From: Thermoplasmata archaeon
GTDB lineage: Archaea; Thermoplasmatota; Thermoplasmata; GCA-020350865
Assembly: GCA_020350865.1 (NCBI GenBank)
Contig: CP070726.1
Coordinates: forward strand, 642,204 to 656,220
Direction of reading: 5' to 3'
DNA length: 14,017 nt
Below, in pieces: positions 1-13,122 of this stretch; the first letter of the stretch is position 1, and each line of letters starts with the position of its first letter. A model generated the notes under the pieces. The model had not been told where the DNA came from. It saw only the letters and a program-made list of their open reading frames with translations, and did not search any database. A program made the position numbers and the translations under genes.

Positions 1-3000
1 GCAAACACAAGAAGGCCCAAGATAAATGGCAATATGACAAACAACCAATTGAAGGGCTCGGGTGTTACCACTTCAAGGTCCACAGGTTCGAGGCTGACGC
101 TGTATTCCCCGTCGCTGGCCGAAAAAACGACATCCCTCAGTTTCTTGTTATTGCCCGGAACCCATGTGGCAGTGTGATTGACCTGGTCTATTTGAATCTC
201 TTCGTTGTTGCATTCAAATGTAAGATAGGGTGTATCCACATCAAGGAAATAATCGTACAGGTCTATGGTCCAGTTCTCATTTTCTTTTATCGTTTTGAAC
301 TGTGGAGGTATTTCTCTTAGTATTATGGGTGCATCATTTACAGGTGAAACAGTAACCAGTATGGCATCCTCCTTGTAGGCGCCATTGGGATCGCTTGCCC
401 TGAAGACCACCAGTTCCGTGCCTGCCCAATTCGGGGAGGCCCTGAAAGTCACCCAGCCGTTCTCATCAATTAGGACCACTAAATATCCACTTGTGTGATT
501 TGCTTTAAAAGAAAGGGTTTCGCCGTCCCTATCATCGAAATAAGTGTTTACATTAAAGGCGTTGCTTAAAACTTTATCCTCATCAAATCCCACGTCTGGG
601 ATGGGCTCATTTAGTGTTGGAGGGTAATTTGCGGTGACTTCGATACCCAATGTTGTGTTGTCCGTGAATAGGCCATCTGAGACGGTTATATCCACAAAAT
701 CTGTCTGGCCCCTCATCTCTTCAGGGTAGATGAGCGTGATTTTCAGTCCATTTATCGAAATGTAAGAATCATTGGACAATATGACCTCCATTTCCGATAA
801 TGGCGTGTCCACATCAGTGACGTAATTGGCCAAATCTATGGTATACGGGTCATTATAACGGACCTGAACTATACCCAAATCTGATATGGTTGGGGGCTCC
901 TTTCTTTCAGTAACTTCGACCTGGGCGGTGTCAAAGCCGAAAGCCGTGCCATCCGTCACCCTCACTCTGACCGTGTAAGTTCCAACGATGTTCCATTTGT
1001 TTCTTACTACATTCTCGGATGAGAATTCTGTGTCCCAATTCCCGTCGTCCTCCCAATCCCACTGGAACAGGAGCTCATCATCACCTGGGTCTGAGGCAGT
1101 AGCGATGAGTATGATGTCACTGCCCTTGATTCCATCGTAGTAATCGCCAATATCCACCTCCGGAGGTACATTGCGCACTTCCACCTGGAGGGTATCAATA
1201 TCCGAGGAACCATCATCGTCTATAACCATGAGTCCAACAGTACGGGTGCCGTCATTGTTCCAAACATATGAGGGTGTCTCCCCCACGCCGTCACCAAAAT
1301 CCCCGTCGGAATCAAAGTCCCAAAGCAAGATCAAAGAATCGCTGTCCGAGGGGGTATCGTAGGAAGCGCTTCCGTTAAAGAAAGCAGTTTCACTCTCATT
1401 GATCACCTGACCCGGGCCGGCATCGGCCACAGGAGGTCTGTTCATCACTGTAATATTAACTACGTCCCAATGCACATTGTTCGATGGATCCCGTGCGATT
1501 AATACAACGGTGTGGGTGGTGTTTTGAGTGAAGACATGGGTCGGTTGAGCATCGTATCCTATAATCTTGCCTCCCACTATCCATGTAAGGTTCAAAATCC
1601 CGGAGTTATCTTGGGAGTTCGTCCCATTGAAGATATAGGGCTCATCCTCCCAAACAGCATCGTCTGGTCCCGCATCAGCTACGGGAGCAACATCGTCACC
1701 CACGAAGAGTGTGAAATTCGTCCAAACGATGCCGCCTTGGCCGTCTTCCACTGTTACGTTCACCCAGTAGTAACCCTTGATACCGGAAGGGGGCGAGCCC
1801 TGAAGCTCCCCTGTGGCCCCGTTCATGTTCAACCAGGAGCCATTGTGGACCATGGACCATGTAAGACCATCATTCTCCAGATCCGCGGCCTCGTAGTCCA
1901 CATAGTACAACTGGCCTTCATCTGCACCTTGATCGTTGTTTGTGGTTATTTTAGGCGGTGAATTCAACACGTAGGGGCCATCTTTTTCCTCACCCTCACT
2001 CCAAAAACCGGTGAGGTTTTCTGCTGCAAAATGATAAGTGTAGTTCAGACCTCTGGCAAAGCCGGTGTTATTGTAATAGTACCATTTGCCGTCGGTGTAA
2101 TTGTCATCGTTTTGATCTAAAATCAGCATATACCAGCTACCCAAATAGGAGGTCCCTTGGGTGATGTTTAAGGTGACATTGAGAGGTACATCTCCCTCCG
2201 GATCCGAATAATTGCACGTGAAATTGAACCAAGTCGTAATAAAGCCAAAACCCGGCTCCACACCCCCAGCTAGAGAAGGAGGTTTATCGCCGACAGCCAA
2301 AGAAAAGTTAGTCCAATCAGAGCCGCCGTATCCATCAATTACAGTCACATTCACCCAGTATATCCCCCTGTCGCTGCCTGAGGGTGTTCCCTCCAATTCC
2401 CCTGTGGTGGAGTTTAGATCCAACCAGAGGGCATTGGTTTCCAAAGACCAATTAAGGGTATCGTTTTCAAGATCATCTGCAGTGTAGTCTACATAGTAAA
2501 GCTCACCCTCCTCTGCGCCCTGCTCGTTGCTTGTCATGATTTTTGGTGGTGAGTTTATCACGTAAGGCCCGTCCTTAGTCCCACTTGTACTCCAAAAACC
2601 TGTTTTGTTGTCCTGTGCTGCAAAATGATACGTGTAATTCGAACCCCTTGCAAAGTATGTTTCATTCAGATAATACCATTTACCGTCGGTGTAATCATTA
2701 TCGCTCGGATCTACGGGAAGCATGTCCCAGGAGCCGAGATGAGATGTCCCTTCAGTGATATTGAGCGTCACCTTCAGTGGCTCATCACCCTCGGGGTCCG
2801 AATAATTCACCGTGAAATTGAACCAGGTAATAATATAGCCAAAACCGGGATCCACTCCCCCTGCAAGGCTGGCCAGTTCACTCACTTCATAGGTCAGATT
2901 CCACTTGAACAAGATAGGCGTTATCAATGGATCTGTGGTTGTGAAGACCCCCCTGAATCTTATCTTTCCTGTGGATGTACTGACAGAAGACAGGTTTCCG

Positions 3001-4838
3001 TCCAGCGTCTGGATCCAATTGGCACCGGAATCAGTGGAATACCAGTATGTTAGGGTCTGGCCATTATCCTGGTCCTCCCCCATGAACTTGCCCCAGTTGA
3101 CCAGTGTTTTTGTCGTGTAATCGCTTGGCAGAAAATCACCGAGCATCTCGATTGCACCGTTGGAACGATACCTGTGGTACGAGATATTGACTGCATTGAG
3201 GACGGGGGACCGTGTTTCGTCGGTGGTGCTCAGGTTGACCATGAATTGAATGAAGTTATTTGTAGGAGATGTTATCGGTTCTCCTCCGGGATTGGTATAC
3301 TCGGCGGACCATGCACTCCATGTATTGCCGTCCGGCGAGGTGCGGGTTCTAATCGAATAACCGGTTCCGGCTCCCTTCAGGGAGACATCCCAGCTTATAT
3401 TCCCCCATAAGACCTGCTGCTGGGCATTGAACTTGTTTGATGTGAAATTTCCCACCAACGCATAATCCAGGGTCGTGATAACGACATTGTCGATATTTAT
3501 ATCACAGCTCATTGGAAATGGCGAGGTCTCATCAGGATGCAGCTGGAAACTGATTGTATAATCCTTTGCAGCGGTCATGTGGGTGCCTATGTTCAGACCC
3601 ACTGCTGTCGCAGGTAACAAGCCATCGATACTTTGATTCCAGACCCCCATTTCGTCTATCTCAACAGTGAGCCATGTATTTGTAAGATTGTAAAAATCAT
3701 TAACGGTATATTCGAATGTCAGGTTTACTGCTGGGGGGAAATCGGGTGTGGCCTTGTTTTTGATGAACGTCTGGTTGACATAGGCGGTCTCGTTGAATGG
3801 AACGGCAGCAGTGGGATCGAGGTAGGTGATGTTCAAATGGGGTTTGTTTGAGGTCTCGTTGGTATCCACCCAGGCTGCGAGATGATCATCATCCTTCTCT
3901 TCTATACCCGCCCCGAACCAATCATGCCTGGTCATATTGTACTGGATATCATAAATAGCCTTTTCTAAGTCATATACCTTCCAATCATTCTCCCCGAAAG
4001 TCATGCTGTCGTCATTTTCTATGAACGCTGTGCCGTCACTGGTGTCAAAGTACAGATATGTGGGGCTTTGACCTGATTCATTGCCTAAATGATGGATATC
4101 GATTCTATGGCTGTTATCAGCTGATTGCTGGGCCAAATATAGATATAAAACGACATCTGTAACGCTTGCAGCATCCGGAATGGAGCTGGTGTTGAAGTAG
4201 AAAAAGCTCCTGTAGTCTTGGTTTACAAGGGGCGGAAACCAAACTTCGCCTATATATGCATCCCAAGCCGTTTCTTCTTTAAAATACCCCGTGGCAATAT
4301 GGTCGTAATACACATGCCCGTCTTCAGAACTGCTGGCAGGGGTCAGGTTTTGGGAGGACTTTACGGGTTCATTGCGCGAGAAGTTCAAGTGAGCTCTCAT
4401 ACCCATATCATCCCAGCGCGATAGAATGCTGGTACTGCTGTTGTACACCCAGTTCTCCTCCTGGCCTACGGTGAAAGTCCCGTTTTTAACCAGGTTCGTG
4501 GTGTTTTGGGTGTAGTTCAATACAACCATACCCGGCTGCTCCGCCTTGGTATTGTAAAGGGTACCATTGTTAAAATCCGAATAAGTGGTTTGATTCCACC
4601 AGAACGTCTCCAATGCAAGGGTAACCTTACCGCTGCCCATGGTCGTGTTCGTCAGAACATAATCGATGGGGCTGTCGAAATTCCATGTGGCGGTAATTGT
4701 GTTGTCGCCGTTATCCACGATGTCGGGTTCGCCTGAGGCATTATCCTGGATGCTGTGAAAAATCAAGGAGAGCTGAAAAAAAAGCAATAAAACCAGCCCA
4801 ACAGCCGTTGCTTTGTTGAAAGTCCTATTTCTGTCCAT
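1..4838 (-). CDS. Giant multidomain surface protein, membrane-anchored (C-terminal end cut by window)
   Basis: This frame stays open from an ATG at 4838 to the window edge (1612 residues), so only the last part of the C-terminus is missing. Residues about 9-27 form a hydrophobic export signal (VGLVLLLFFQLSLIF). Residues ~175-345 resemble DNRLRE domains (YRSFFYFNTSSIPDA). Residues ~345-655 are further beta-sandwich modules, one with an SPDGNTWSAWS motif. Residues 657-1050 are two copies of a ~197-residue unit, each an Ig-like part followed by a He_PIG/cadherin-like part (WLDLNSTTGELEGTP). Three PKD-like domains follow (~1050-1312; PVADAG, WDFDSDGDFGDG), then three cadherin-like domains (~1312-1590; PVNDAP). 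The hydrophobic segment NWLFVILPFILGLLVF ends at the edge and is a probable membrane anchor. N-glycosylation sequons are plentiful. I infer a type I envelope protein for adhesion or structure; no enzyme motif is visible. No clear SD precedes the start; GTG and TTG codons lie just upstream in frame. Confidence 0.9.
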   Translation of the reverse strand, partial: MDRNRTFNKATAVGLVLLLFFQLSLIFHSIQDNASGEPDIVDNGDNTITATWNFDSPIDYVLTNTTMGSGKVTLALETFWWNQTTYSDFNNGTLYNTKAEQPGMVVLNYTQNTTNLVKNGTFTVGQEENWVYNSSTSILSRWDDMGMRAHLNFSRNEPVKSSQNLTPASSSEDGHVYYDHIATGYFKEETAWDAYIGEVWFPPLVNQDYRSFFYFNTSSIPDAASVTDVVLYLYLAQQSADNSHRIDIHHLGNESGQSPTYLYFDTSDGTAFIENDDSMTFGENDWKVYDLEKAIYDIQYNMTRHDWFGAGIEEKDDDHLAAWVDTNETSNKPHLNITYLDPTAAVPFNETAYVNQTFIKNKATPDFPPAVNLTFEYTVNDFYNLTNTWLTVEIDEMGVWNQSIDGLLPATAVGLNIGTHMTAAKDYTISFQLHPDETSPFPMSCDINIDNVVITTLDYALVGNFTSNKFNAQQQVLWGNISWDVSLKGAGTGYSIRTRTSPDGNTWSAWSAEYTNPGGEPITSPTNNFIQFMVNLSTTDETRSPVLNAVNISYHRYRSNGAIEMLGDFLPSDYTTKTLVNWGKFMGEDQDNGQTLTYWYSTDSGANWIQTLDGNLSSVSTSTGKIRFRGVFTTTDPLITPILFKWNLTYEVSELASLAGGVDPGFGYIITWFNFTVNYSDPEGDEPLKVTLNITEGTSHLGSWDMLPVDPSDNDYTDGKWYYLNETYFARGSNYTYHFAAQDNKTGFWSTSGTKDGPYVINSPPKIMTSNEQGAEEGELYYVDYTADDLENDTLNWSLETNALWLDLNSTTGELEGTPSGSDRGIYWVNVTVIDGYGGSDWTNFSLAVGDKPPSLAGGVEPGFGFITTWFNFTCNYSDPEGDVPLNVTLNITQGTSYLGSWYMLILDQNDDNYTDGKWYYYNNTGFARGLNYTYHFAAENLTGFWSEGEEKDGPYVLNSPPKITTNNDQGADEGQLYYVDYEAADLENDGLTWSMVHNGSWLNMNGATGELQGSPPSGIKGYYWVNVTVEDGQGGIVWTNFTLFVGDDVAPVADAGPDDAVWEDEPYIFNGTNSQDNSGILNLTWIVGGKIIGYDAQPTHVFTQNTTHTVVLIARDPSNNVHWDVVNITVMNRPPVADAGPGQVINESETAFFNGSASYDTPSDSDSLILLWDFDSDGDFGDGVGETPSYVWNNDGTRTVGLMVIDDDGSSDIDTLQVEVRNVPPEVDIGDYYDGIKGSDIILIATASDPGDDELLFQWDWEDDGNWDTEFSSENVVRNKWNIVGTYTVRVRVTDGTAFGFDTAQVEVTERKEPPTISDLGIVQVRYNDPYTIDLANYVTDVDTPLSEMEVILSNDSYISINGLKITLIYPEEMRGQTDFVDITVSDGLFTDNTTLGIEVTANYPPTLNEPIPDVGFDEDKVLSNAFNVNTYFDDRDGETLSFKANHTSGYLVVLIDENGWVTFRASPNWAGTELVVFRASDPNGAYKEDAILVTVSPVNDAPIILREIPPQFKTIKENENWTIDLYDYFLDVDTPYLTFECNNEEIQIDQVNHTATWVPGNNKKLRDVVFSASDGEYSVSLEPVDLEVVTPEPFNWLFVILPFILGLLVF
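1691..2276 (-). repeat. Tandem module copy 2 inside the giant surface protein (~195 residues)
   Basis: This second unit begins SLAGGVEPGFGFITTWFNF, directly abutting copy 1. It repeats the landmarks NYSDPEGD, YTDGKWYY, NYTYHFAAE, KDGPYVLNSPPKI, EGQLYYVDY and YYWVNVTVEDG with scattered substitutions. It leads into the first PKD-like domain (APVADAGP). Confidence 0.85.
2277..2870 (-). repeat. Tandem module copy 1 inside the giant surface protein (198 residues)
   Basis: This is the first of two consecutive homologous units, beginning SLAGGVDPGFGYIITWFNF. Each unit has an Ig-like half (NYSDPEGD, then NYTYHFAA, GFWS) and a He_PIG-like half (NSPPKI, then EGELYYVDY, TTGELEGTP, YWVNVTV). The order of motifs is the same in both copies, so this is a recent intragenic duplication rather than two unrelated domains. 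Confidence 0.85.
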
Positions 4839-4907
4839 TTTCAACACAACGAATGGTTATTTCATCATTTGACCTGATAATCTTGATTCCGCATCTATCA
4901 TAAATGC

Positions 4908-8494: not shown

Positions 8495-10696
8495 CTACTT
8501 ATTGCTTGATTTCCGCAGTCTCGGTATGACAGCCCCTGCCACCAAAATGAGAATGATGGTGATGATTATGAATATTATCTCCACCGTATAATCCCTTTCC
8601 TTGCCCTCATGCCTCTCCGGGTCAAGCGGGTAGGCGTCGTGCTTATCGAGGACACCATCCCCGTCCTTGTCATCATCATCCCCATCCACGATGTAGTCGC
8701 CGTCCAGGTCCGGGGGCGTGGAAGTAACGTCCAAGGCATCAAAATGCCATTCCACTTCCACATCATCCGGATATCCATCCAAATCCGCCTCCGCAAAATA
8801 CATGATTGTGAGCTGCCATGTGTGGGACGCGTTGACTGTTCCATTTGAAACGGTAACCGTGACATTTCCATGCTGGATTTCGTTTGAGCTGTTGTAATCC
8901 AGGGGTACTTCGATTTGAGAAACGTTGTCATTGTAGGTTCTTAACAATGATTGGGGCCCGTCGTACTGCCAGCTGTAATCGAGTTCACCGGTTCCGAGAA
9001 AGCTGACCCCAACCTTCAGTGTTATCTTCTTTCCCTCGTTTATCACGGGATTGGTCTCAGGCACAATTTCGGTGATTTCCAGTGGTTCGATATCTGAAGC
9101 TGTTGTGTACAATTGCCAAATCCTCTCCACCCAAAACTCCCCGTCAGATACCACGGCCCTTATGGTATGTGACCCCACACCGTGAATACCTGAGAAGAAT
9201 TCGTATTGGCTTTCGTTTTCGTTTGGCAGCCTCATATTATCCAGATACCAGCTGTATGTGAGTGTATCTGTGTCATTATCTTCAGCTGATACATTGAATT
9301 CCAGTGATTCACCTTCCATGAGATAGGGAGAATATTCAGGTGAACTTTGTACAATCTCAGGTGGATGGTTCTCGGTCATGGTGAAGATGTAAACGTCATA
9401 TGAGGTTCTGTTTCTGTTATCCTGCCATACGATTCTGTTGGTATATATCACAGGAGAGGAGTGGATGAGCGGGACATCTGTTATGTTACTCAAGGCGGGA
9501 TCCGGAGATTCAGTGTCTGAATCCATGTAATTCGGAACATCGTCTCCATCCGAATCCACCAGCAGATCATACAACCGAATGTAATATTCATCGTTTATTC
9601 CGTAACTGAATACAATCTTGGTGCTGTGGATGTTGCATAACTTGAGTTCGATTTTTTGCTCGGATGTGCTGTTTGTGACCCGATGCTCCGTACCTGTTAC
9701 GATATTGTAGAGATAGACATTGTCCGACCTCGTATATGCGATCAGATTGCCGTGAATCGAGGGTTTGAAATCCGAAGCGGAATTTGTGGTTATTCTTACC
9801 TCCGCGGGGTCGTCTTCCTGGAGTCGGGAATCGAGGTAATTGGGCACCCCATCACCGTCTGAATCCACAGAGAGGTTGTACATTACGATTTCAATATCTC
9901 CTTTACCAGTATACCTCTCGTCCTCCCACACGACCTTGTCACCGTATATCTTGGGATTGATTTGGAAGGGAAATCTCCATTTGGTTATTCCTCCGGAAGT
10001 TTCATAAGACCAACCCGTTTCATTGTACCCTCCTATCATCGCCTCCTTGTCCGAAATGGAATCGTATATGAACACATCCTTATTGCCGTACCTCGAATCC
10101 TGCCATACTATCTTATCCCCGTAAACAGCGGGTTTTTCCTGATCAGCAGGATTATCTGTTATCCTTTTCTCTGCAGGGTCATAATCTTGGTCATTTTCGT
10201 CCAACGTATCATCGCCGTCATCATCCAAGTCGAGATAATTAGGGATTCCATCGGAATCAGTGTCCTCGGAGAGATCGTACATGTAAATATCGAAGCTTCC
10301 AAACCTGTTGTCCTCCCAAACGATGGTGTCCTCGTAAATCTGGGGATAAAATTTATTCGAAATATTGTGGGTCAACCTGATTTTTGCAGGGTCGGGATCC
10401 GGTTTCCCCCCTGTGGATGAATTCTCGAGGTAGTTTGGAAGGCCATCCTTATTGCTATCCAATGCTAAATCATACAGGTATATCTCCCAATAGGTGTTTC
10501 CATTTTCAGAGTGCCTCTCCGACCACACTATCTTATCGCCGTAAATTGCTGGATAGCCTTGAGAAAGCTCGTCATCCGTTATATTAGTTTCAATACCTTC
10601 TATTTCTGCACCGGCTGCAGTATTGGACATGGAGGTAAATAACAGCGTTGTTAGTATGATTATCGTTATCAAATTAACGTAGACCTTTCCTCTCAT
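8495..10696 (-). CDS. Secreted seven-bladed beta-propeller protein with calcium-loop inserts, membrane-anchored
   Basis: This gene encodes 733 residues. Residues ~8-30 are an export signal (LITIIILTTLLFTSM). From ~45 to 440 I count seven TolB/WD40-like blades with the pattern P-x-IYGDKIVWeD-R...DIYLYDL (starts near 49, 118, 189, 248, 311, 352 and 414), enough for a closed propeller. Blades 1, 2, 4 and 6 are followed by Asp-rich loops such as DSDGDGVPNYLD, which resemble thrombospondin-type-3/EF-loop calcium sites. Two Ig/PKD-like domains follow (~444-531 and ~536-632). A further Asp-rich calcium-type stretch (~636-695; DKDGDGVLDKHDAYPLDP) precedes a membrane segment (~703-724) and a basic tail (RLRKSSNK). 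I infer an extracellular binding or structural role; no catalytic motif is seen. The ATG follows an SD-like TGAGGA and a TATA box. Two bases separate its stop from that of convergent pyrK. Confidence 0.92.
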   Translation of the reverse strand: MRGKVYVNLITIIILTTLLFTSMSNTAAGAEIEGIETNITDDELSQGYPAIYGDKIVWSERHSENGNTYWEIYLYDLALDSNKDGLPNYLENSSTGGKPDPDPAKIRLTHNISNKFYPQIYEDTIVWEDNRFGSFDIYMYDLSEDTDSDGIPNYLDLDDDGDDTLDENDQDYDPAEKRITDNPADQEKPAVYGDKIVWQDSRYGNKDVFIYDSISDKEAMIGGYNETGWSYETSGGITKWRFPFQINPKIYGDKVVWEDERYTGKGDIEIVMYNLSVDSDGDGVPNYLDSRLQEDDPAEVRITTNSASDFKPSIHGNLIAYTRSDNVYLYNIVTGTEHRVTNSTSEQKIELKLCNIHSTKIVFSYGINDEYYIRLYDLLVDSDGDDVPNYMDSDTESPDPALSNITDVPLIHSSPVIYTNRIVWQDNRNRTSYDVYIFTMTENHPPEIVQSSPEYSPYLMEGESLEFNVSAEDNDTDTLTYSWYLDNMRLPNENESQYEFFSGIHGVGSHTIRAVVSDGEFWVERIWQLYTTASDIEPLEITEIVPETNPVINEGKKITLKVGVSFLGTGELDYSWQYDGPQSLLRTYNDNVSQIEVPLDYNSSNEIQHGNVTVTVSNGTVNASHTWQLTIMYFAEADLDGYPDDVEVEWHFDALDVTSTPPDLDGDYIVDGDDDDKDGDGVLDKHDAYPLDPERHEGKERDYTVEIIFIIITIILILVAGAVIPRLRKSSNK

Positions 10697-10777: not shown

Positions 10778-11005
10778 CTATTCCTGCAGTTCTCTGTTTT
10801 GCTCCTCGTACATCTCGCACAGTTCCCATAGAAATTCATCATATGTCTTCCTGAACTTCAGCCAATACAGCCTGTCCCTAACCTTTGTGGAGATGGGTAT
10901 GCTTGTTTTCTTAATTTCCTCTTCTAGTTTTATTTCCTCTTCCACCTCCTCTTTCTTTGCATCTTCCTTTTTTTTCTTTGTTCCTTTTTTGGATTGTTTT
11001 GGCAT
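10778..11005 (-). CDS. Small Lys/Glu-rich protein with ribbon-helix-helix-like C-terminus
   Basis: From ATG 11005 this encodes 75 residues; a GTG at 11014 would add three. I prefer the ATG because GTGAT, a match to the archaeal SD, ends four bases before it. Residues ~3-33 are low-complexity and highly charged (KKGTKKKKEDAKKEEVEEE). The last ~40 residues contain TSIPISTKVRDRLYWLK followed by TYDEFLWELCEMYEEQN. This pattern of a short strand plus two helices resembles archaeal CopG/RHH-type small proteins and antitoxin-like DUF7557 members. A DNA-binding regulator is therefore possible, but no toxin partner is visible beside it. It lies between the AT-rich segment and the propeller gene, on the same strand as the recombinases. 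Confidence 0.65.
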   Translation of the reverse strand: MPKQSKKGTKKKKEDAKKEEVEEEIKLEEEIKKTSIPISTKVRDRLYWLKFRKTYDEFLWELCEMYEEQNRELQE

Positions 11006-11036
11006 ATAAATCACATAATGTATATAGTTTTATTAA

Positions 11037-11044
11037 TATTTATA
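11037..11044 (-). promoter_or_regulatory. Possible TATA box of the small RHH-like gene
   Basis: TATAAATA on the minus strand lies about 35 bases before ATG 11005, predicting initiation around 11015. The surroundings are so AT-rich that similar words occur often, so position is the main support. Confidence 0.35.
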
Positions 11045-11264
11045 CTTTTTTTAATTTTATTAAGATTTATTTTAACATATATCTTGTGGCTGTTTATTTA
11101 TTTTATTATATAATTTATACTATATTGGTTATTTAAAAGATATTCATTAATACCTTTAATATTCATTATAAAAGCATTAATAATATAAATCTTATAAAGA
11201 ATATATGCTTATAACCGCTCTATTAATGTTTATAGTTTACTTATTATAGTACGGAGCGATATGT

Positions 11265-11280
11265 ACTAATAAATATTAGT
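11265..11280. repeat. Perfect 16-base inverted repeat
   Basis: ACTAATA-AA-TATTAGT has seven-base arms and a two-base centre. It overlaps a second, looser pairing between AGTAC at 11249-11253 and GTACT at 11263-11267, so the 11243-11280 area can form alternative hairpins or serve as a dimeric protein site. Confidence 0.6.
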
Positions 11281-11442
11281 GCGAAGCTTAATAGATACTT
11301 CAATCAGTACATAATTCTATAAATAAGTATAGAGTTTATAATATTCATTATATCATTTACATTTATTTCATTATAGCAGTTATAATTGATTTTCACCCGG
11401 TATTAAAAACAACGGTCTACCGATGTTCCATATATCTCATAG

Positions 11443-11473
11443 GGCTAAAAACCCTAAAATAAGGCGAAAAACC
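11443..11473 (-). terminator. Possible oligo-T terminator of the recombinase pair
   Basis: On the minus strand, just after the stop of the downstream recombinase gene, two GGTTTTTNGCC units lie 20 bases apart with TTATTTTA between them. Short T runs after a stop are the usual archaeal intrinsic termination signal. The distal unit also sits in a weak TAGGG/CCCTA stem. Confidence 0.4.
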
Positions 11474-11478
11474 GGGGG

Positions 11479-12201
11479 TTAATCCACCAAAATCAGTGGT
11501 TTGGACCGATAACGGGGGTTTCTGATGTTTCTCTGTATCCTTTCCTGCACATTGTTGAAGAGCTCCCTATCAATGAGGGGCTCATGATCAGCTTTGACAG
11601 CTTCGCTGCCTTTGAAATCGTATCCGGCATAGACGGGATTCTTCAGGATGTCCCTTACCGCCCCCACGCCCCAACCACAGCCTTCCCCTCCTGCATTGTT
11701 ATCAAGGCTCCGAGCAATGGATTCCATAGTTCGTCCTGACAAGTACTCTTCAAAGATTTGTTTGACAACCTCACCATCAACATTGATAATCTTTAGCGTG
11801 CTATCATCTAACTCGTATCCGAAAGGCGCCTGTTGGTCTTTTCCCTCCTCCACGGTGTCATCCCCTCTAACCTTATCTCCCTTCTCTTCAACTTGCACGG
11901 CTGCGGAGTCCACACCTTTTTCACTGCACCACTTATCAAGTGCCTCTGCCTCGCTTTGAGCATCGTAATGCTGAATGAATTCCTTTGGAGAAGCGAATCT
12001 CAGGAAAAGATCTTCGAAGGCATCCTCATTCCCTTCCCCCTGCGGTGCTTCGCCCTTGCACTTCTCACAAAGAATGATAAAACCTTTGGCTTCGCTTCCG
12101 AGAAAAAGTGATCTGGGATAGAGATTGATATCCTTTTCAGACCAGCATCGCTGGCACCTGTATTCATTATCAGCAGGTTTCAACTGCTGCTTTTTGGTCA
12201 T
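11479..12201 (-). CDS. Recombinase-domain protein without catalytic domain (Cys4 module plus Recombinase domain)
   Basis: From ATG 12201 this encodes 240 residues. Residues 16-19 and 45-48 are two CxxC pairs (YRCQRCW and ILCEKCKG), a zinc-ribbon or degenerate treble-clef module. A mixed helical stretch and charged linker (~55-122) follows. Residues ~124-240 are a Recombinase domain (PF07508 type): APFGYELDDSTLKI, GRTMESIARSLDN, ILKNPVYAGY, DHEPLIDRELFNNVQERI. It clearly resembles residues ~157-275 of the upstream recombinase (HPYGYDY, KSTRDIAEELD, ILKNPVYCGY, FNLVQE). There is no resolvase catalytic domain. The start overlaps the upstream gene by 32 bases and has AGGAG at 12212-12216; the same frame is open to an ATG at 12249. 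I infer a DNA-binding partner subunit; a remnant of a second recombinase is the alternative. Confidence 0.85.
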   Translation of the reverse strand: MTKKQQLKPADNEYRCQRCWSEKDINLYPRSLFLGSEAKGFIILCEKCKGEAPQGEGNEDAFEDLFLRFASPKEFIQHYDAQSEAEALDKWCSEKGVDSAAVQVEEKGDKVRGDDTVEEGKDQQAPFGYELDDSTLKIINVDGEVVKQIFEEYLSGRTMESIARSLDNNAGGEGCGWGVGAVRDILKNPVYAGYDFKGSEAVKADHEPLIDRELFNNVQERIQRNIRNPRYRSKPLILVD

Positions 12202-13084
12202 CTTCCCCAGACTCCTTGATAGATTCAATATTAGCAGGCTCTTTTTCATCCGCAGGCAACTCGATGAGCCTTGGCTTCCGCTTCAGTTTAGAATTTCTTG
12301 TCCTTTTAAAGAGCGTCTCCTGTACTAAGTTGAAATCGTCGATTGAAATGATGGATTCATGCTCTCCTTTGAACACGAAATCCTCCCATTCCAGATAGCC
12401 GCAGTACACGGGATTCTTAAGTATCTTTCCCACCGTCCTGGCCGACCAGCATCCATTTCTTTTAGTCGGATATCCACTGCCATCCAGCTCCTCGGCTATG
12501 TCTCTGGTACTCTTACCATAGATATAAAGATTGAACATGAACTTGACCGCCTCTGCCTCCCTTTCATTAATTCTCAGTTCACCTTTGATATAATCATAAC
12601 CGTAGGGGTGGGCAAAACCCAGAATACCTCCTTCCGTTGAGGCTTTCTGCTTCATACCGATGTAGACTCTTTCCCCGATCTGCTCGCTTTCGAGCTGTGC
12701 AATTCTCTGAATAATATCCACAACGAACCGCCCCATGGCAGTGCTCGTATCGAGACTCTCCTGCATGCTAGAAAATTCCTTCCCCCACTTCCTCAGGTTG
12801 TCCATCATCTCCATGAAGTTCTTGCTGTTTCGGTGGATGCGGTCCATCTTCATGACGAGGATCATGTCCCACTCGTCCTTCTCCTCCATCATCCTTTTAT
12901 AGGCTGGTCTTTTGATGCTCCTGCCTGAATAACCGTCGTCCACGTACTCCCTGGCAACCTCCCATTCCCTTGCCCTGCAGTAGTTTCTCAGCCTTTCAAG
13001 CTGGGCGCTCAGTGAATAGCCTTCCTTGGCCTGCTCTGTGGTGGATACCCTGAGGTAGACTGCAACTTTCACCGCGCATCCCAT
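12170..13084 (-). CDS. Serine recombinase, catalytic and Recombinase domains, short form
   Basis: This encodes 304 residues. Residues ~5-145 are the resolvase catalytic domain: VAVYLRVSTTEQAKEGYSL with Arg12 and the nucleophile Ser14, YVDDGYSGRSIKRPAYKRM, and MKMDRIHRNSKNF carrying the conserved D-R-x-x-R (81-85). The long linking helix (~117-145) follows, then a Recombinase DNA-binding domain (~152-275; ILGFAHPYGYDY, ILKNPVYCGY). Family members usually have 450 or more residues, with a zinc ribbon and coiled coil after this point; here translation stops after an acidic tail. The missing part may be supplied by the overlapping next gene, which lies in the +1 frame. ATG 13084 is used; GTG 13072 is an alternative. 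It probably moves or inverts a DNA segment by serine-mediated strand exchange. A palindrome lies in its promoter. Confidence 0.93.
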   Translation of the reverse strand: MGCAVKVAVYLRVSTTEQAKEGYSLSAQLERLRNYCRAREWEVAREYVDDGYSGRSIKRPAYKRMMEEKDEWDMILVMKMDRIHRNSKNFMEMMDNLRKWGKEFSSMQESLDTSTAMGRFVVDIIQRIAQLESEQIGERVYIGMKQKASTEGGILGFAHPYGYDYIKGELRINEREAEAVKFMFNLYIYGKSTRDIAEELDGSGYPTKRNGCWSARTVGKILKNPVYCGYLEWEDFVFKGEHESIISIDDFNLVQETLFKRTRNSKLKRKPRLIELPADEKEPANIESIKESGEDDQKAAVETC

Positions 13085-13101: not shown

Positions 13102-13122
13102 TGTCAGACTATTTGTCCGACA
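13102..13122. promoter_or_regulatory. Imperfect palindrome in the recombinase promoter, probable operator or recombination site
   Basis: TGTCAGAC-N5-GTCCGACA: the arms TGTCNGAC and GTCNGACA match at seven of eight positions around a five-base centre. It lies directly downstream of the TATA box and covers the expected transcription start, the usual place for an archaeal repressor. Autoregulation by the recombinase, binding of the RHH-like protein or use as a crossover site are all possible. Confidence 0.55.

What the first reader, a model, noticed from the sequence alone, without database searches (positions are those of the whole stretch)
11479..13084. A serine recombinase divided over two overlapping genes with duplicated Recombinase domains
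The upstream gene has the catalytic domain and a Recombinase domain but stops where large serine recombinases normally continue into zinc ribbon and coiled coil. The overlapping downstream gene has no catalytic domain but carries a Cys4 module and a second, homologous Recombinase domain (shared ILKNPVY-x-GY and FN-x-VQE). Both frames look intact and start signals are plausible, so this resembles a two-subunit recombinase rather than simple decay. A +1 frameshift fusion is an alternative.
Basis: partly seen in the sequence, partly recalled or inferred. Interest (0 to 1): 0.72.

Follow-up and report, generated by a model that had tools for sequence, protein, structure and literature searches.

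The report
Archaeal serine recombinase with dif-like site
Two neighbouring archaeal genes, one a likely working DNA recombinase and one a partner without the cutting part, sit beside a short mirror-image DNA site that in several related genomes occurs only once, so they may form an unrecognised system for separating joined chromosomes.

Summary
ORF A (catalytic + Recombinase domain, no zinc ribbon or coiled coil found) overlaps ORF B (Cys4 + Recombinase domain, no catalytic domain). B is a conserved family, not debris or a frameshift: all 12 B loci read have A as neighbour, with variable spacing and all frame relations. But 'two-subunit recombinase' is only partly right: A usually occurs without B, B can decay, and in Methanomassiliicoccales A has a second, fully catalytic tandem paralogue.

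A counterpart follows the recombinase in 12/12 A-B and 20/20 A-only loci (three variants by eye; the window's only 8/12 symmetric). In 19 of 20 genomes searched it lies beside the gene, with four stray matches elsewhere. Site type tracks Recombinase-domain type. XerA is over its cut-off in 3/116 genomes with A, 86/273 without.

Best reading: a chromosomal serine recombinase acting on one dif-like site, probably resolving chromosome dimers in place of XerA/dif, with B a non-catalytic accessory. Activity is untested; kinship among genomes weakens the statistics, and evidence for a terminus position is ambiguous.

The parts
12170..13084 (-). ORF A: serine recombinase, 304 aa, catalytic domain + Recombinase domain, no C-terminal zinc ribbon/coiled coil found
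12638..13066 (-). A catalytic (Resolvase) domain, residues 7-149; Y10 R12 S14 R59 D81 R82 R85
12308..12562 (-). A Recombinase (PF07508) domain, residues 175-259
11479..12201 (-). ORF B with the start shared by relatives (240 aa); overlaps A by 32 nt; no catalytic domain
12058..12156 (-). B Cys4 module (C16, C19, C45, C48), a degenerate HNH-type zinc knuckle
11896..12027 (-). B conserved helical segment with the FASPKE motif (residues 59-102)
11527..11775 (-). B Recombinase (PF07508) domain, residues 143-225
11405..11430 (-). Candidate crossover site: imperfect palindrome with asymmetric 2-bp core, TGGAACATCGGT-AG-ACCGTTGTTTTT (8 of 12 positions paired)
   Evidence: relatives
13102..13122 (.). 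Two TGTCNGACA-type elements upstream of A (operator-like; one exact, one with a mismatch), also upstream of A in G001 and several A-A' loci

Best explanation
A is a domesticated, chromosomally encoded serine recombinase that acts on one short palindromic site, which in the genomes counted is essentially single-copy and lies just downstream of its own gene or operon. With a single site per chromosome the reaction it can do on the host genome is between two copies of the chromosome. The most likely job is therefore resolution of chromosome dimers, the role played by XerA/dif in most archaea: A dimers bind the two half-sites, synapse the two sites of a dimeric chromosome, cut at the central AG with a 2-nt stagger, and rejoin after subunit rotation. 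B is a partner that carries a second Recombinase domain on a zinc-knuckle/FASPKE N-terminus related to HNH proteins. In the window's lineage the HNH residues are lost, so B most likely modulates A (assembly, timing or direction) rather than cutting DNA. Shown by computation: gene and domain anatomy, intact catalytic residues, site anatomy, near single copy of the site in relatives, conserved neighbourhood, co-variation of Recombinase-domain type with site type, rarity of XerA where A is present. Inferred: cleavage at AG, dimer resolution, B as modulator, and single copy in the window's own genome.
For: Site: follows the recombinase in 12/12 A-B loci (10 with palindrome score >=9 and a CGGNNNNCCG core, the window itself 8, G069 a variant core) and 20/20 A-only loci (18 with that score and core, 2 variants). 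Control: 2 of 288 other gene ends, both the same recombinase sites seen from a convergent neighbour. Copy number: TTCGGTAGWCCGAA with <=1 mismatch gives 23 matches in 20 genomes, 19 of them beside the recombinase, 4 elsewhere, reversed-pattern control 8; the 10-mer CGGTAGACCG occurs once, at the pair, in G001 (5.2 Mb), G002, G214 and G190, and 18 times against 52 for the control over 10 genomes. Core orientation relative to the gene varies, so it is not one conserved RNA loop. Recombinase-domain type x goes with ATCAA-type sites (6 loci placed in the tree) and type y with GTTAC-type (10 loci), G069 included; domain exchange between A and B is supported. Gene: one match in 60 and two in 56 of the 116/389 genomes that have it, recurring neighbourhoods (S8e-SRP19...TrkA; propeller protein; RPA-like/thermosome), catalytic residues intact in 101 proteins apart from gaps in one truncated row. 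XerA over its cut-off in 3/116 genomes with A and 86/273 without (Fisher 6e-12); no XerA hit at all at 1e-30 in G001; 0 of 8 genomes behind other loci over cut-off, five of them Hydrothermarchaeota-type. A-A' pairs descend from one duplication (A1 98/89, A2 100/93) and lie 42-50% of the chromosome from the best-scoring Cdc6 gene in 7/7 single-contig genomes computed (but see against). In two A-A' loci (G302, G180) and one fragment an asymmetric site with two different half-sites follows, as a XerC/XerD-dif-like division of labour would predict.
Against: No activity has been measured. Position: in the same seven A-A' genomes the second Cdc6 gene lies only 2-12% from the pair, so the terminus reading depends on which Cdc6 marks the origin; in A-B and A-only genomes the distance to the best Cdc6 is 14% (G001), 10% (G002), 22% (G135), 15% (G129) and 43% (G111). 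In 25 of 27 A-A' rows, and in the A1-type gene without visible partner L032, no such site was found near the genes. G135's only exact CGGTAGACCG lies elsewhere; its site at the pair reads CGGACTACCG. The XerA statistics treat related genomes as independent; one or a few ancestral events could produce them. 52/116 A genomes still have some XerA-like hit at E<=1e-30, three are over cut-off, and 47/273 genomes without A have no such hit either; 7 of the 8 genomes have sub-cut-off matches (up to 188 bits). Only three loci of the window's own clade could be read (window, G001, G002), the window's site is only partly palindromic, and the window's own genome is not held. B's Recombinase domain in the S8e clade is of the type that matches B-less relatives' sites, not its own genome's, which the modulator idea does not explain.
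Confidence: 0.47

Rival explanations
1. Obligate two-subunit recombinase: A supplies catalysis and B the distal DNA binding that zinc ribbon/coiled coil give in large serine recombinases, so the enzyme works only as an A-B complex on this site.
For: A-B adjacency in 12/12 B loci; window, G001 and G002 sites share a mild asymmetry of the outer half-sites (TGGAAC versus AAGAAC/AAAAAC); both proteins keep a Recombinase domain; B's Cys4 kept in 35/36.
Against: A occurs without B, with a perfect or near-perfect palindrome, in 20 loci read; B decays while A and site persist; in the S8e clade B's domain type does not match the site of its own genome.
Confidence: 0.15
2. B began as a site-directed homing-like nuclease: an HNH domain aimed by a Recombinase domain at the crossover site of strains that lack it, inserted between A and its site; in the window's clade the nuclease has died and the gene was kept for another use.
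For: 6 of 14 distant B proteins keep an HNH-like HH...CxxCH, as do five of the six S8e-clade B (L159 not); PF01844 hits in 8/50; in that clade B of L157-L162 other than L160 carries the y-type domain that matches the GTTACC sites of B-less relatives while its own genome has ATCAA-like sites and no exact y-type site; B has decayed in G278.
Against: None of 36 close relatives of the window's B keeps the HNH residues although the protein is conserved, which points to a non-nuclease function there; no cleavage shown; the alternative is simple domain exchange.
Confidence: 0.12
3. The palindrome is an operator or a transcription-end hairpin and A acts elsewhere or is a regulator.
For: It lies just after the stop codon in most loci and could fold as an RNA hairpin with a TAGA-type loop (by eye, not folded); other palindromes near A look operator-like.
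Against: Core orientation relative to transcription is reversed in several loci and the distance reaches +607; rarity elsewhere in the genomes; co-variation with Recombinase-domain type.
Confidence: 0.15
4. A and B are the integrase module of a mobile element, and the site is attP or a hybrid att site.
For: Recombinase-domain recombinases are usually element-borne (recalled); best NCBI models are CcrA/B/C and XisF.
Against: One or two matches per genome, recurring housekeeping neighbours, A1 and A2 each one supported group, single site with no second copy.
Confidence: 0.08
5. DNA invertase for phase variation of the neighbouring secreted proteins.
For: Secreted or surface protein genes often adjoin (by eye); B is inverted relative to A in G069; core orientation varies between genomes.
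Against: Essentially one site per genome; only a short AT-rich inverted repeat near the pair in the window.
Confidence: 0.05
6. Frameshift, sequencing error or gene decay.
For: Overlap of two homologous domains in different frames.
Against: B has its own conserved start and N-terminal module, all three frame relations and some gaps, 36 close proteins.
Confidence: 0.01

Closest known systems
Large serine recombinases / serine integrases (A118 = 4kis/6dnw, SPbeta YokA = 9dxh/9y66, PhiC31, Bxb1, TP901-1)
   Same: Catalytic domain and Recombinase domain by sequence and fold; 2-bp core in the site (PMC5357621 passage).
   Different: A ends after the Recombinase domain, no zinc ribbon or coiled coil found; one 26-bp site found rather than attP/attB; chromosomal and syntenic.
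XerA/dif (archaea), XerCD/dif, XerS/difSL, XerH/difH
   Same: One or two paralogous chromosomal recombinases and a single site of similar length (26 against 28-31 bp), linked to the gene as in xerA/dif modules and XerS/difSL (PMC5357621 and PMC2958812, passages).
   Different: Serine, not tyrosine, recombinase; 2-bp instead of 6-bp centre; no biochemical proof.
Tn3/gamma-delta and Sin resolvases
   Same: Serine recombinases that resolve joined replicons at palindromic crossover sites with accessory sites (recalled); palindromic 19-bp elements flank the operon and site in one clade here.
   Different: A has a PF07508 domain, not a small HTH; the role of the flanking elements is unknown.
CcrA/CcrB of SCCmec
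   Same: Best NCBI matches of A; two adjacent serine recombinases (recalled).
   Different: Far below the family cut-offs (CcrB 167 against 900 bits); A is about half as long as the CcrB model (304 against 542); not on a known cassette.
HNH endonucleases (PF01844)
   Same: B family members outside the window's clade match it.
   Different: The window's B lacks the HH and CxxCH residues.

Membership tests
Large serine recombinase (A) | N-terminal Resolvase domain with catalytic Ser and Arg/Asp set | tested here: met
   PF00239 7e-36; Y10 R12 S14 R59 D81 R82 R85 kept in 101 proteins apart from gaps in one truncated row
Large serine recombinase (A) | Recombinase domain PF07508 | tested here: met
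Large serine recombinase (A) | Zinc ribbon and coiled coil after the Recombinase domain | tested here: not met
   No Pfam match, protein ends at 304 with no modelled element of length after residue 261
Large serine recombinase (A) | Distinct attP and attB partners | tested here: inconclusive
   One site type found in relatives; the window's own genome is not held
Small serine resolvase/invertase (A) | Short helix-turn-helix DNA-binding domain after the E helix | tested here: not met
   PF07508 instead
Chromosome-dimer resolution system (Xer/dif-like) | Chromosomal, low-copy, vertically inherited recombinase | tested here: met
   One or two matches in 116/389 genomes, synteny, tree
Chromosome-dimer resolution system (Xer/dif-like) | Single chromosomal crossover site | tested here: met
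   In relatives with A alone or A-B; not found in 25 of 27 A-A' rows; not testable in the window's genome
Chromosome-dimer resolution system (Xer/dif-like) | Site in the terminus region | tested here: inconclusive
   42-50% from the best Cdc6 gene but 2-12% from the second in 7/7 A-A' genomes; 10-43% from the best in five others
Chromosome-dimer resolution system (Xer/dif-like) | Resolves dimers in vivo or in vitro | not testable with these tools
   needs an experiment
Xer tyrosine recombinase | Tyrosine recombinase fold | tested here: not met
   A is a serine recombinase
CcrAB | NCBIfam equivalog cut-off | tested here: not met
   167 bits against 900 for CcrB, 122 against 700 for CcrA
HNH endonuclease (B) | HNH catalytic residues | tested here: not met
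   0 of 36 in the window's clade; 6 of 14 in the distant set

The most novel reading that the evidence does not exclude
Several archaeal lineages (Thermoplasmatota including Methanomassiliicoccales, and Hydrothermarchaeota-type genomes) have replaced XerA/dif by a serine recombinase and a 26-bp dif-like site. By gene duplication they also evolved a two-recombinase version with an asymmetric site (a serine parallel to XerC/XerD), and in the window's lineage a version whose partner lost catalysis and carries a dead HNH-type domain.
Probability: 0.42. Interest if true: 0.92.

Novelty: new variant of a known kind. Interest (0 to 1): 0.8.

Why it matters
In the passages read, chromosome dimer resolution is described as the work of tyrosine recombinases in both bacteria and archaea, and for archaea lacking XerA one paper suggests recruitment of another tyrosine recombinase (PMC2958812, PMC5357621). 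A serine recombinase with a single linked site would be a convergent solution with a different chemistry. It would make the question directly testable with a small module of one or two genes and a 26-bp site, and it adds a natural recombinase of about 270-300 aa without zinc ribbon or coiled coil. The co-variation of Recombinase domain and site also offers a natural code for half-site recognition.

Tried and rejected
Looked for paired inverted or direct repeats that would mark an invertible or mobile segment in the window and for inverted repeats in nine relatives: in the window only short AT-rich matches; in one clade 19-bp palindromes flank the operon, judged accessory or operator elements rather than crossover sites because they occur in several copies per locus. 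No Rfam match over threshold and no tRNA in the window. A stricter genome-wide site pattern found only 5 of 389 genomes because it was drawn too narrowly; of its five, G001, G214, G126 and G385 are at the recombinase contig, G009 has no A. The viral collection gave 52 loci, all matching B only from residue 62 onwards; they were not examined further. A 16-mer motif search in 36 A-A' loci gave operator-like TGTCNGACA and coding matches but no common downstream site. dN/dS was not computed: only three loci of the window's clade have DNA and B differs at about half of its residues, so synonymous changes would be saturated. The 526-aa protein P0079 looks by eye like two tandem catalytic recombinases read as one, not an A-B fusion. 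The structure comparison was dominated by the Recombinase domain of B; the fold of B's N-terminal part was not tested separately. A catalytic-only tree was too shallow to resolve most forks.
Full report
What is in the window. On the minus strand lie ORF A (12170-13084, 304 aa) and ORF B (11479-12249 in the mechanical list; 11479-12201, 240 aa, by the start shared with relatives), overlapping by 32 nt. A is a Resolvase plus Recombinase protein; B has only the Recombinase domain behind a Cys4 module and a conserved FASPKE helical stretch. Upstream is an NMD3 gene; downstream, after an AT-rich stretch (23% GC at 11000-11499) and a small gene, lies a propeller-like surface protein and then pyrK/pyrD-like genes (names by eye). 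Both proteins are listed with a contig of 2,495,319 bases. No whole genome is held for the window.

A is a family of its own. One search found 3353 homologues. In 389 genomes of the phylum, 116 have A at E<=1e-60, 60 with one match and 56 with two (at most six candidates were scored per genome, and a few second matches may be B). Nine of 389 have a full-length B. Arrangements are A alone, A-B, and A-A' with two catalytic tandem genes. In the tree of 101 proteins the first genes (A1) and the second genes (A2) of the pairs each form one supported group; the only other rows inside are L010, L032 and L033, classed as solo by my script: L010 has a broken first gene, L033 runs off the contig, and L032 is an A1-type gene with no visible partner. 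The window and G001 sit near the base of the A2 side with moderate support. Catalytic residues are intact in all groups. A has no modelled element of length after its Recombinase domain and matches catalytic domains and integrases in the PDB.

The site. Printing the flanks showed a palindrome after B. With 12-bp arms and a 2-bp centre, A-only loci read GTTACCTTCGGT-AG-ACCGAAGGTAAC, A-B loci ATCAACTTCGGT-AG-ACCGAAGTTGAT, Hydrothermarchaeota-type loci GTAAACAACGGT-AG-(A/T)CCG(T/C)(C/T)GTTTAC, and the window clade TGGAACAWCGGT-AG-ACCG-like. The centre is AG or, reversed, CT, except GG in L003 and GA in L136. Counting every distinct locus with A alone or A-B: 10 of 12 A-B loci and 18 of 20 A-only loci have a CGG-N4-CCG core with palindrome score 9 or more; the window scores 8; G069, L155 and L169 have variant cores. 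The site starts between 83 bases before and 68 after the end of the last gene in A-B loci and between -21 and +607 in A-only loci. L010, L032 and L033 were left out of this count; none has such a site nearby. Of 288 ends of other genes 2 had such a palindrome, both the same sites seen from the neighbour. The loci were fetched by B-profile score, not by the site.

Copy number. The 10-mer CGGTAGACCG occurs once in G001, G002, G214 and G190, at the pair; over ten genomes it occurs 18 times against 52 for the reversed pattern; in G135 the one exact match lies elsewhere and the site at the pair reads CGGACTACCG. The 14-mer TTCGGTAGWCCGAA with up to one mismatch gives 23 matches in 20 genomes that I chose among those with A alone or A-B: 19 beside the recombinase, one (G123) on another contig, two more in G105 and one in G132, these four with a mismatch; control 8. 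A y-type pattern matches exactly only in G069, G111, G129 and G220 of 12 genomes; matches with two mismatches in G135, G190 (three), G278 and G111 (one) look like chance (control 3), and one in G129 is its own site read on the other strand.

Recombinase-domain type and site type move together. The tree of Recombinase domains shows that A and B of the S8e clade carry two types (121 columns, many forks unresolved). A of type x goes with ATCAA-type sites (L157, L158, L161, L172, L141, L144) and A of type y with GTTAC-type sites (L138, L168, L139, L140, L171, L146, L170, L148, L169, L160); L155 (y) has a variant, GGTACC/GTAACC, read by eye, and L159 (x-like) has GTCAAT. The catalytic part alone does not separate the two types, and one supported branch joins L159 to L138/L168, so domains were exchanged. 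This links A's domain to the palindrome, with the caveat that the number of independent changes is small. B of L157, L158, L159, L161 and L162 is of type y while its own genome's site is of the x kind, which is unexplained; in L160 A is y, B is x-like and the site is y.

Genome context. A-only and A-B loci of one clade sit near S8e/SRP19 and mostly TrkA genes; the window, G001 and G002 share the propeller gene, and the window and G001 also pyr genes; several A-A' pairs lie by an RPA-like gene and the thermosome (names by eye). This argues for a resident chromosomal gene.

XerA. NF040815 is over its cut-off in 3 of 116 genomes with A (G063, G122, G159) and 86 of 273 without (Fisher 6e-12, ignoring kinship). 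At E<=1e-30 the split is 52 of 116 against 226 of 273. G001 has no XerA hit and only a 98-aa tyrosine-recombinase fragment, whereas the nine other genomes have two to 38 tyrosine-recombinase matches. Of eight genomes behind other loci (one of them, G385, is also among the 389), five of them Hydrothermarchaeota-type, none is over cut-off but seven have weaker matches. Many genomes are incomplete assemblies.

Position. Distance from the best Cdc6_C match to the recombinase, as a share of the contig: A-A' G078 42.6, G134 47.9, G148 47.8, G159 49.9, G165 49.9, G110 44.3, G125 42.4; A-only G111 43.3, G129 15.0; A-B G135 21.7, G001 14.1, G002 10.3 percent (G143, in several contigs, left out). Each genome has a second Cdc6 match; in the seven A-A' genomes it lies 2.3-11.6% from the pair, in the others 29-44%. 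So the pair is opposite the better Cdc6 but close to the other in A-A' genomes; the origin was not determined. One review reports archaeal dif at 122-144 degrees from oriC (PMC5357621, passages).

A-A' sites. L167 (G302), L149 (G180) and the fragment L012 share an asymmetric site TTGATATTCGGG-AG-(A/T)CCGTC(G/A)TTGAC about 100 bp downstream; the other 25 of 27 A-A' rows do not (two loci are present twice among the rows).

Literature. Searches listed no paper that by its title or the start of its abstract treats a chromosomal archaeal serine recombinase of this kind or serine-recombinase dimer resolution of a chromosome. Passages were read in PMC8371274, PMC2958812, PMC5357621 and PMC2873285. 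The library lacks most subscription papers, so absence is not proof.

Verdict. The pair is real and conserved, B is more likely an accessory than half an enzyme, and the larger finding is a resident serine recombinase with a single dif-like site. Dimer resolution is the best but unproven function.

Noticed in passing
L157 4743-4796 and 6687-6742, L158 8492 and 10397-10450, L161, L162, L168, L171 and others: A 19-bp palindromic element, TGCTAGATAATATCTAGCA-like, occurs 1-5 times per locus (up to 4 mismatches) in 11 of 11 S8e-clade loci, mostly flanking the recombinase operon and site, and not in 9 other loci; possible accessory or operator sites.
   Followed up: partly
window 13102-13122; L164, L004, L011, L137, L142, L149, L153, L165, L167, L173: TGTCNGACA palindromes, often in pairs, lie upstream of A in the window, G001 and several A-A' loci.
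   Followed up: partly
L160 8805-11035 (G069): B is inverted relative to A, with the y-type site directly after A; B carries the other Recombinase-domain type than its S8e-clade relatives.
   Followed up: partly
L172, about 600 bases after A (G278): B survives as a pseudogene between an intact A and an intact site.
   Followed up: yes
A-A' genomes G078, G134, G148, G159, G165, G110, G125: The second Cdc6 gene lies within 2.3-11.6% of the chromosome from the recombinase pair in all seven; meaning unknown.
   Followed up: partly
window 3-4847 and 8495-10696: Large secreted repeat protein (1615 aa, runs off the end) and a propeller-like surface protein on the same strand as the pair; the latter has counterparts beside the pair in G001 and G002.
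   Followed up: partly
window 10778-11014: Small 78-aa protein with a weak DUF7557 match (0.00036, below cut-off); a similar short sequence appears downstream of the pair in L163 (by eye).
   Followed up: no
window 11000-11499: 23% GC intergenic stretch with many short imperfect AT-rich repeats.
   Followed up: no
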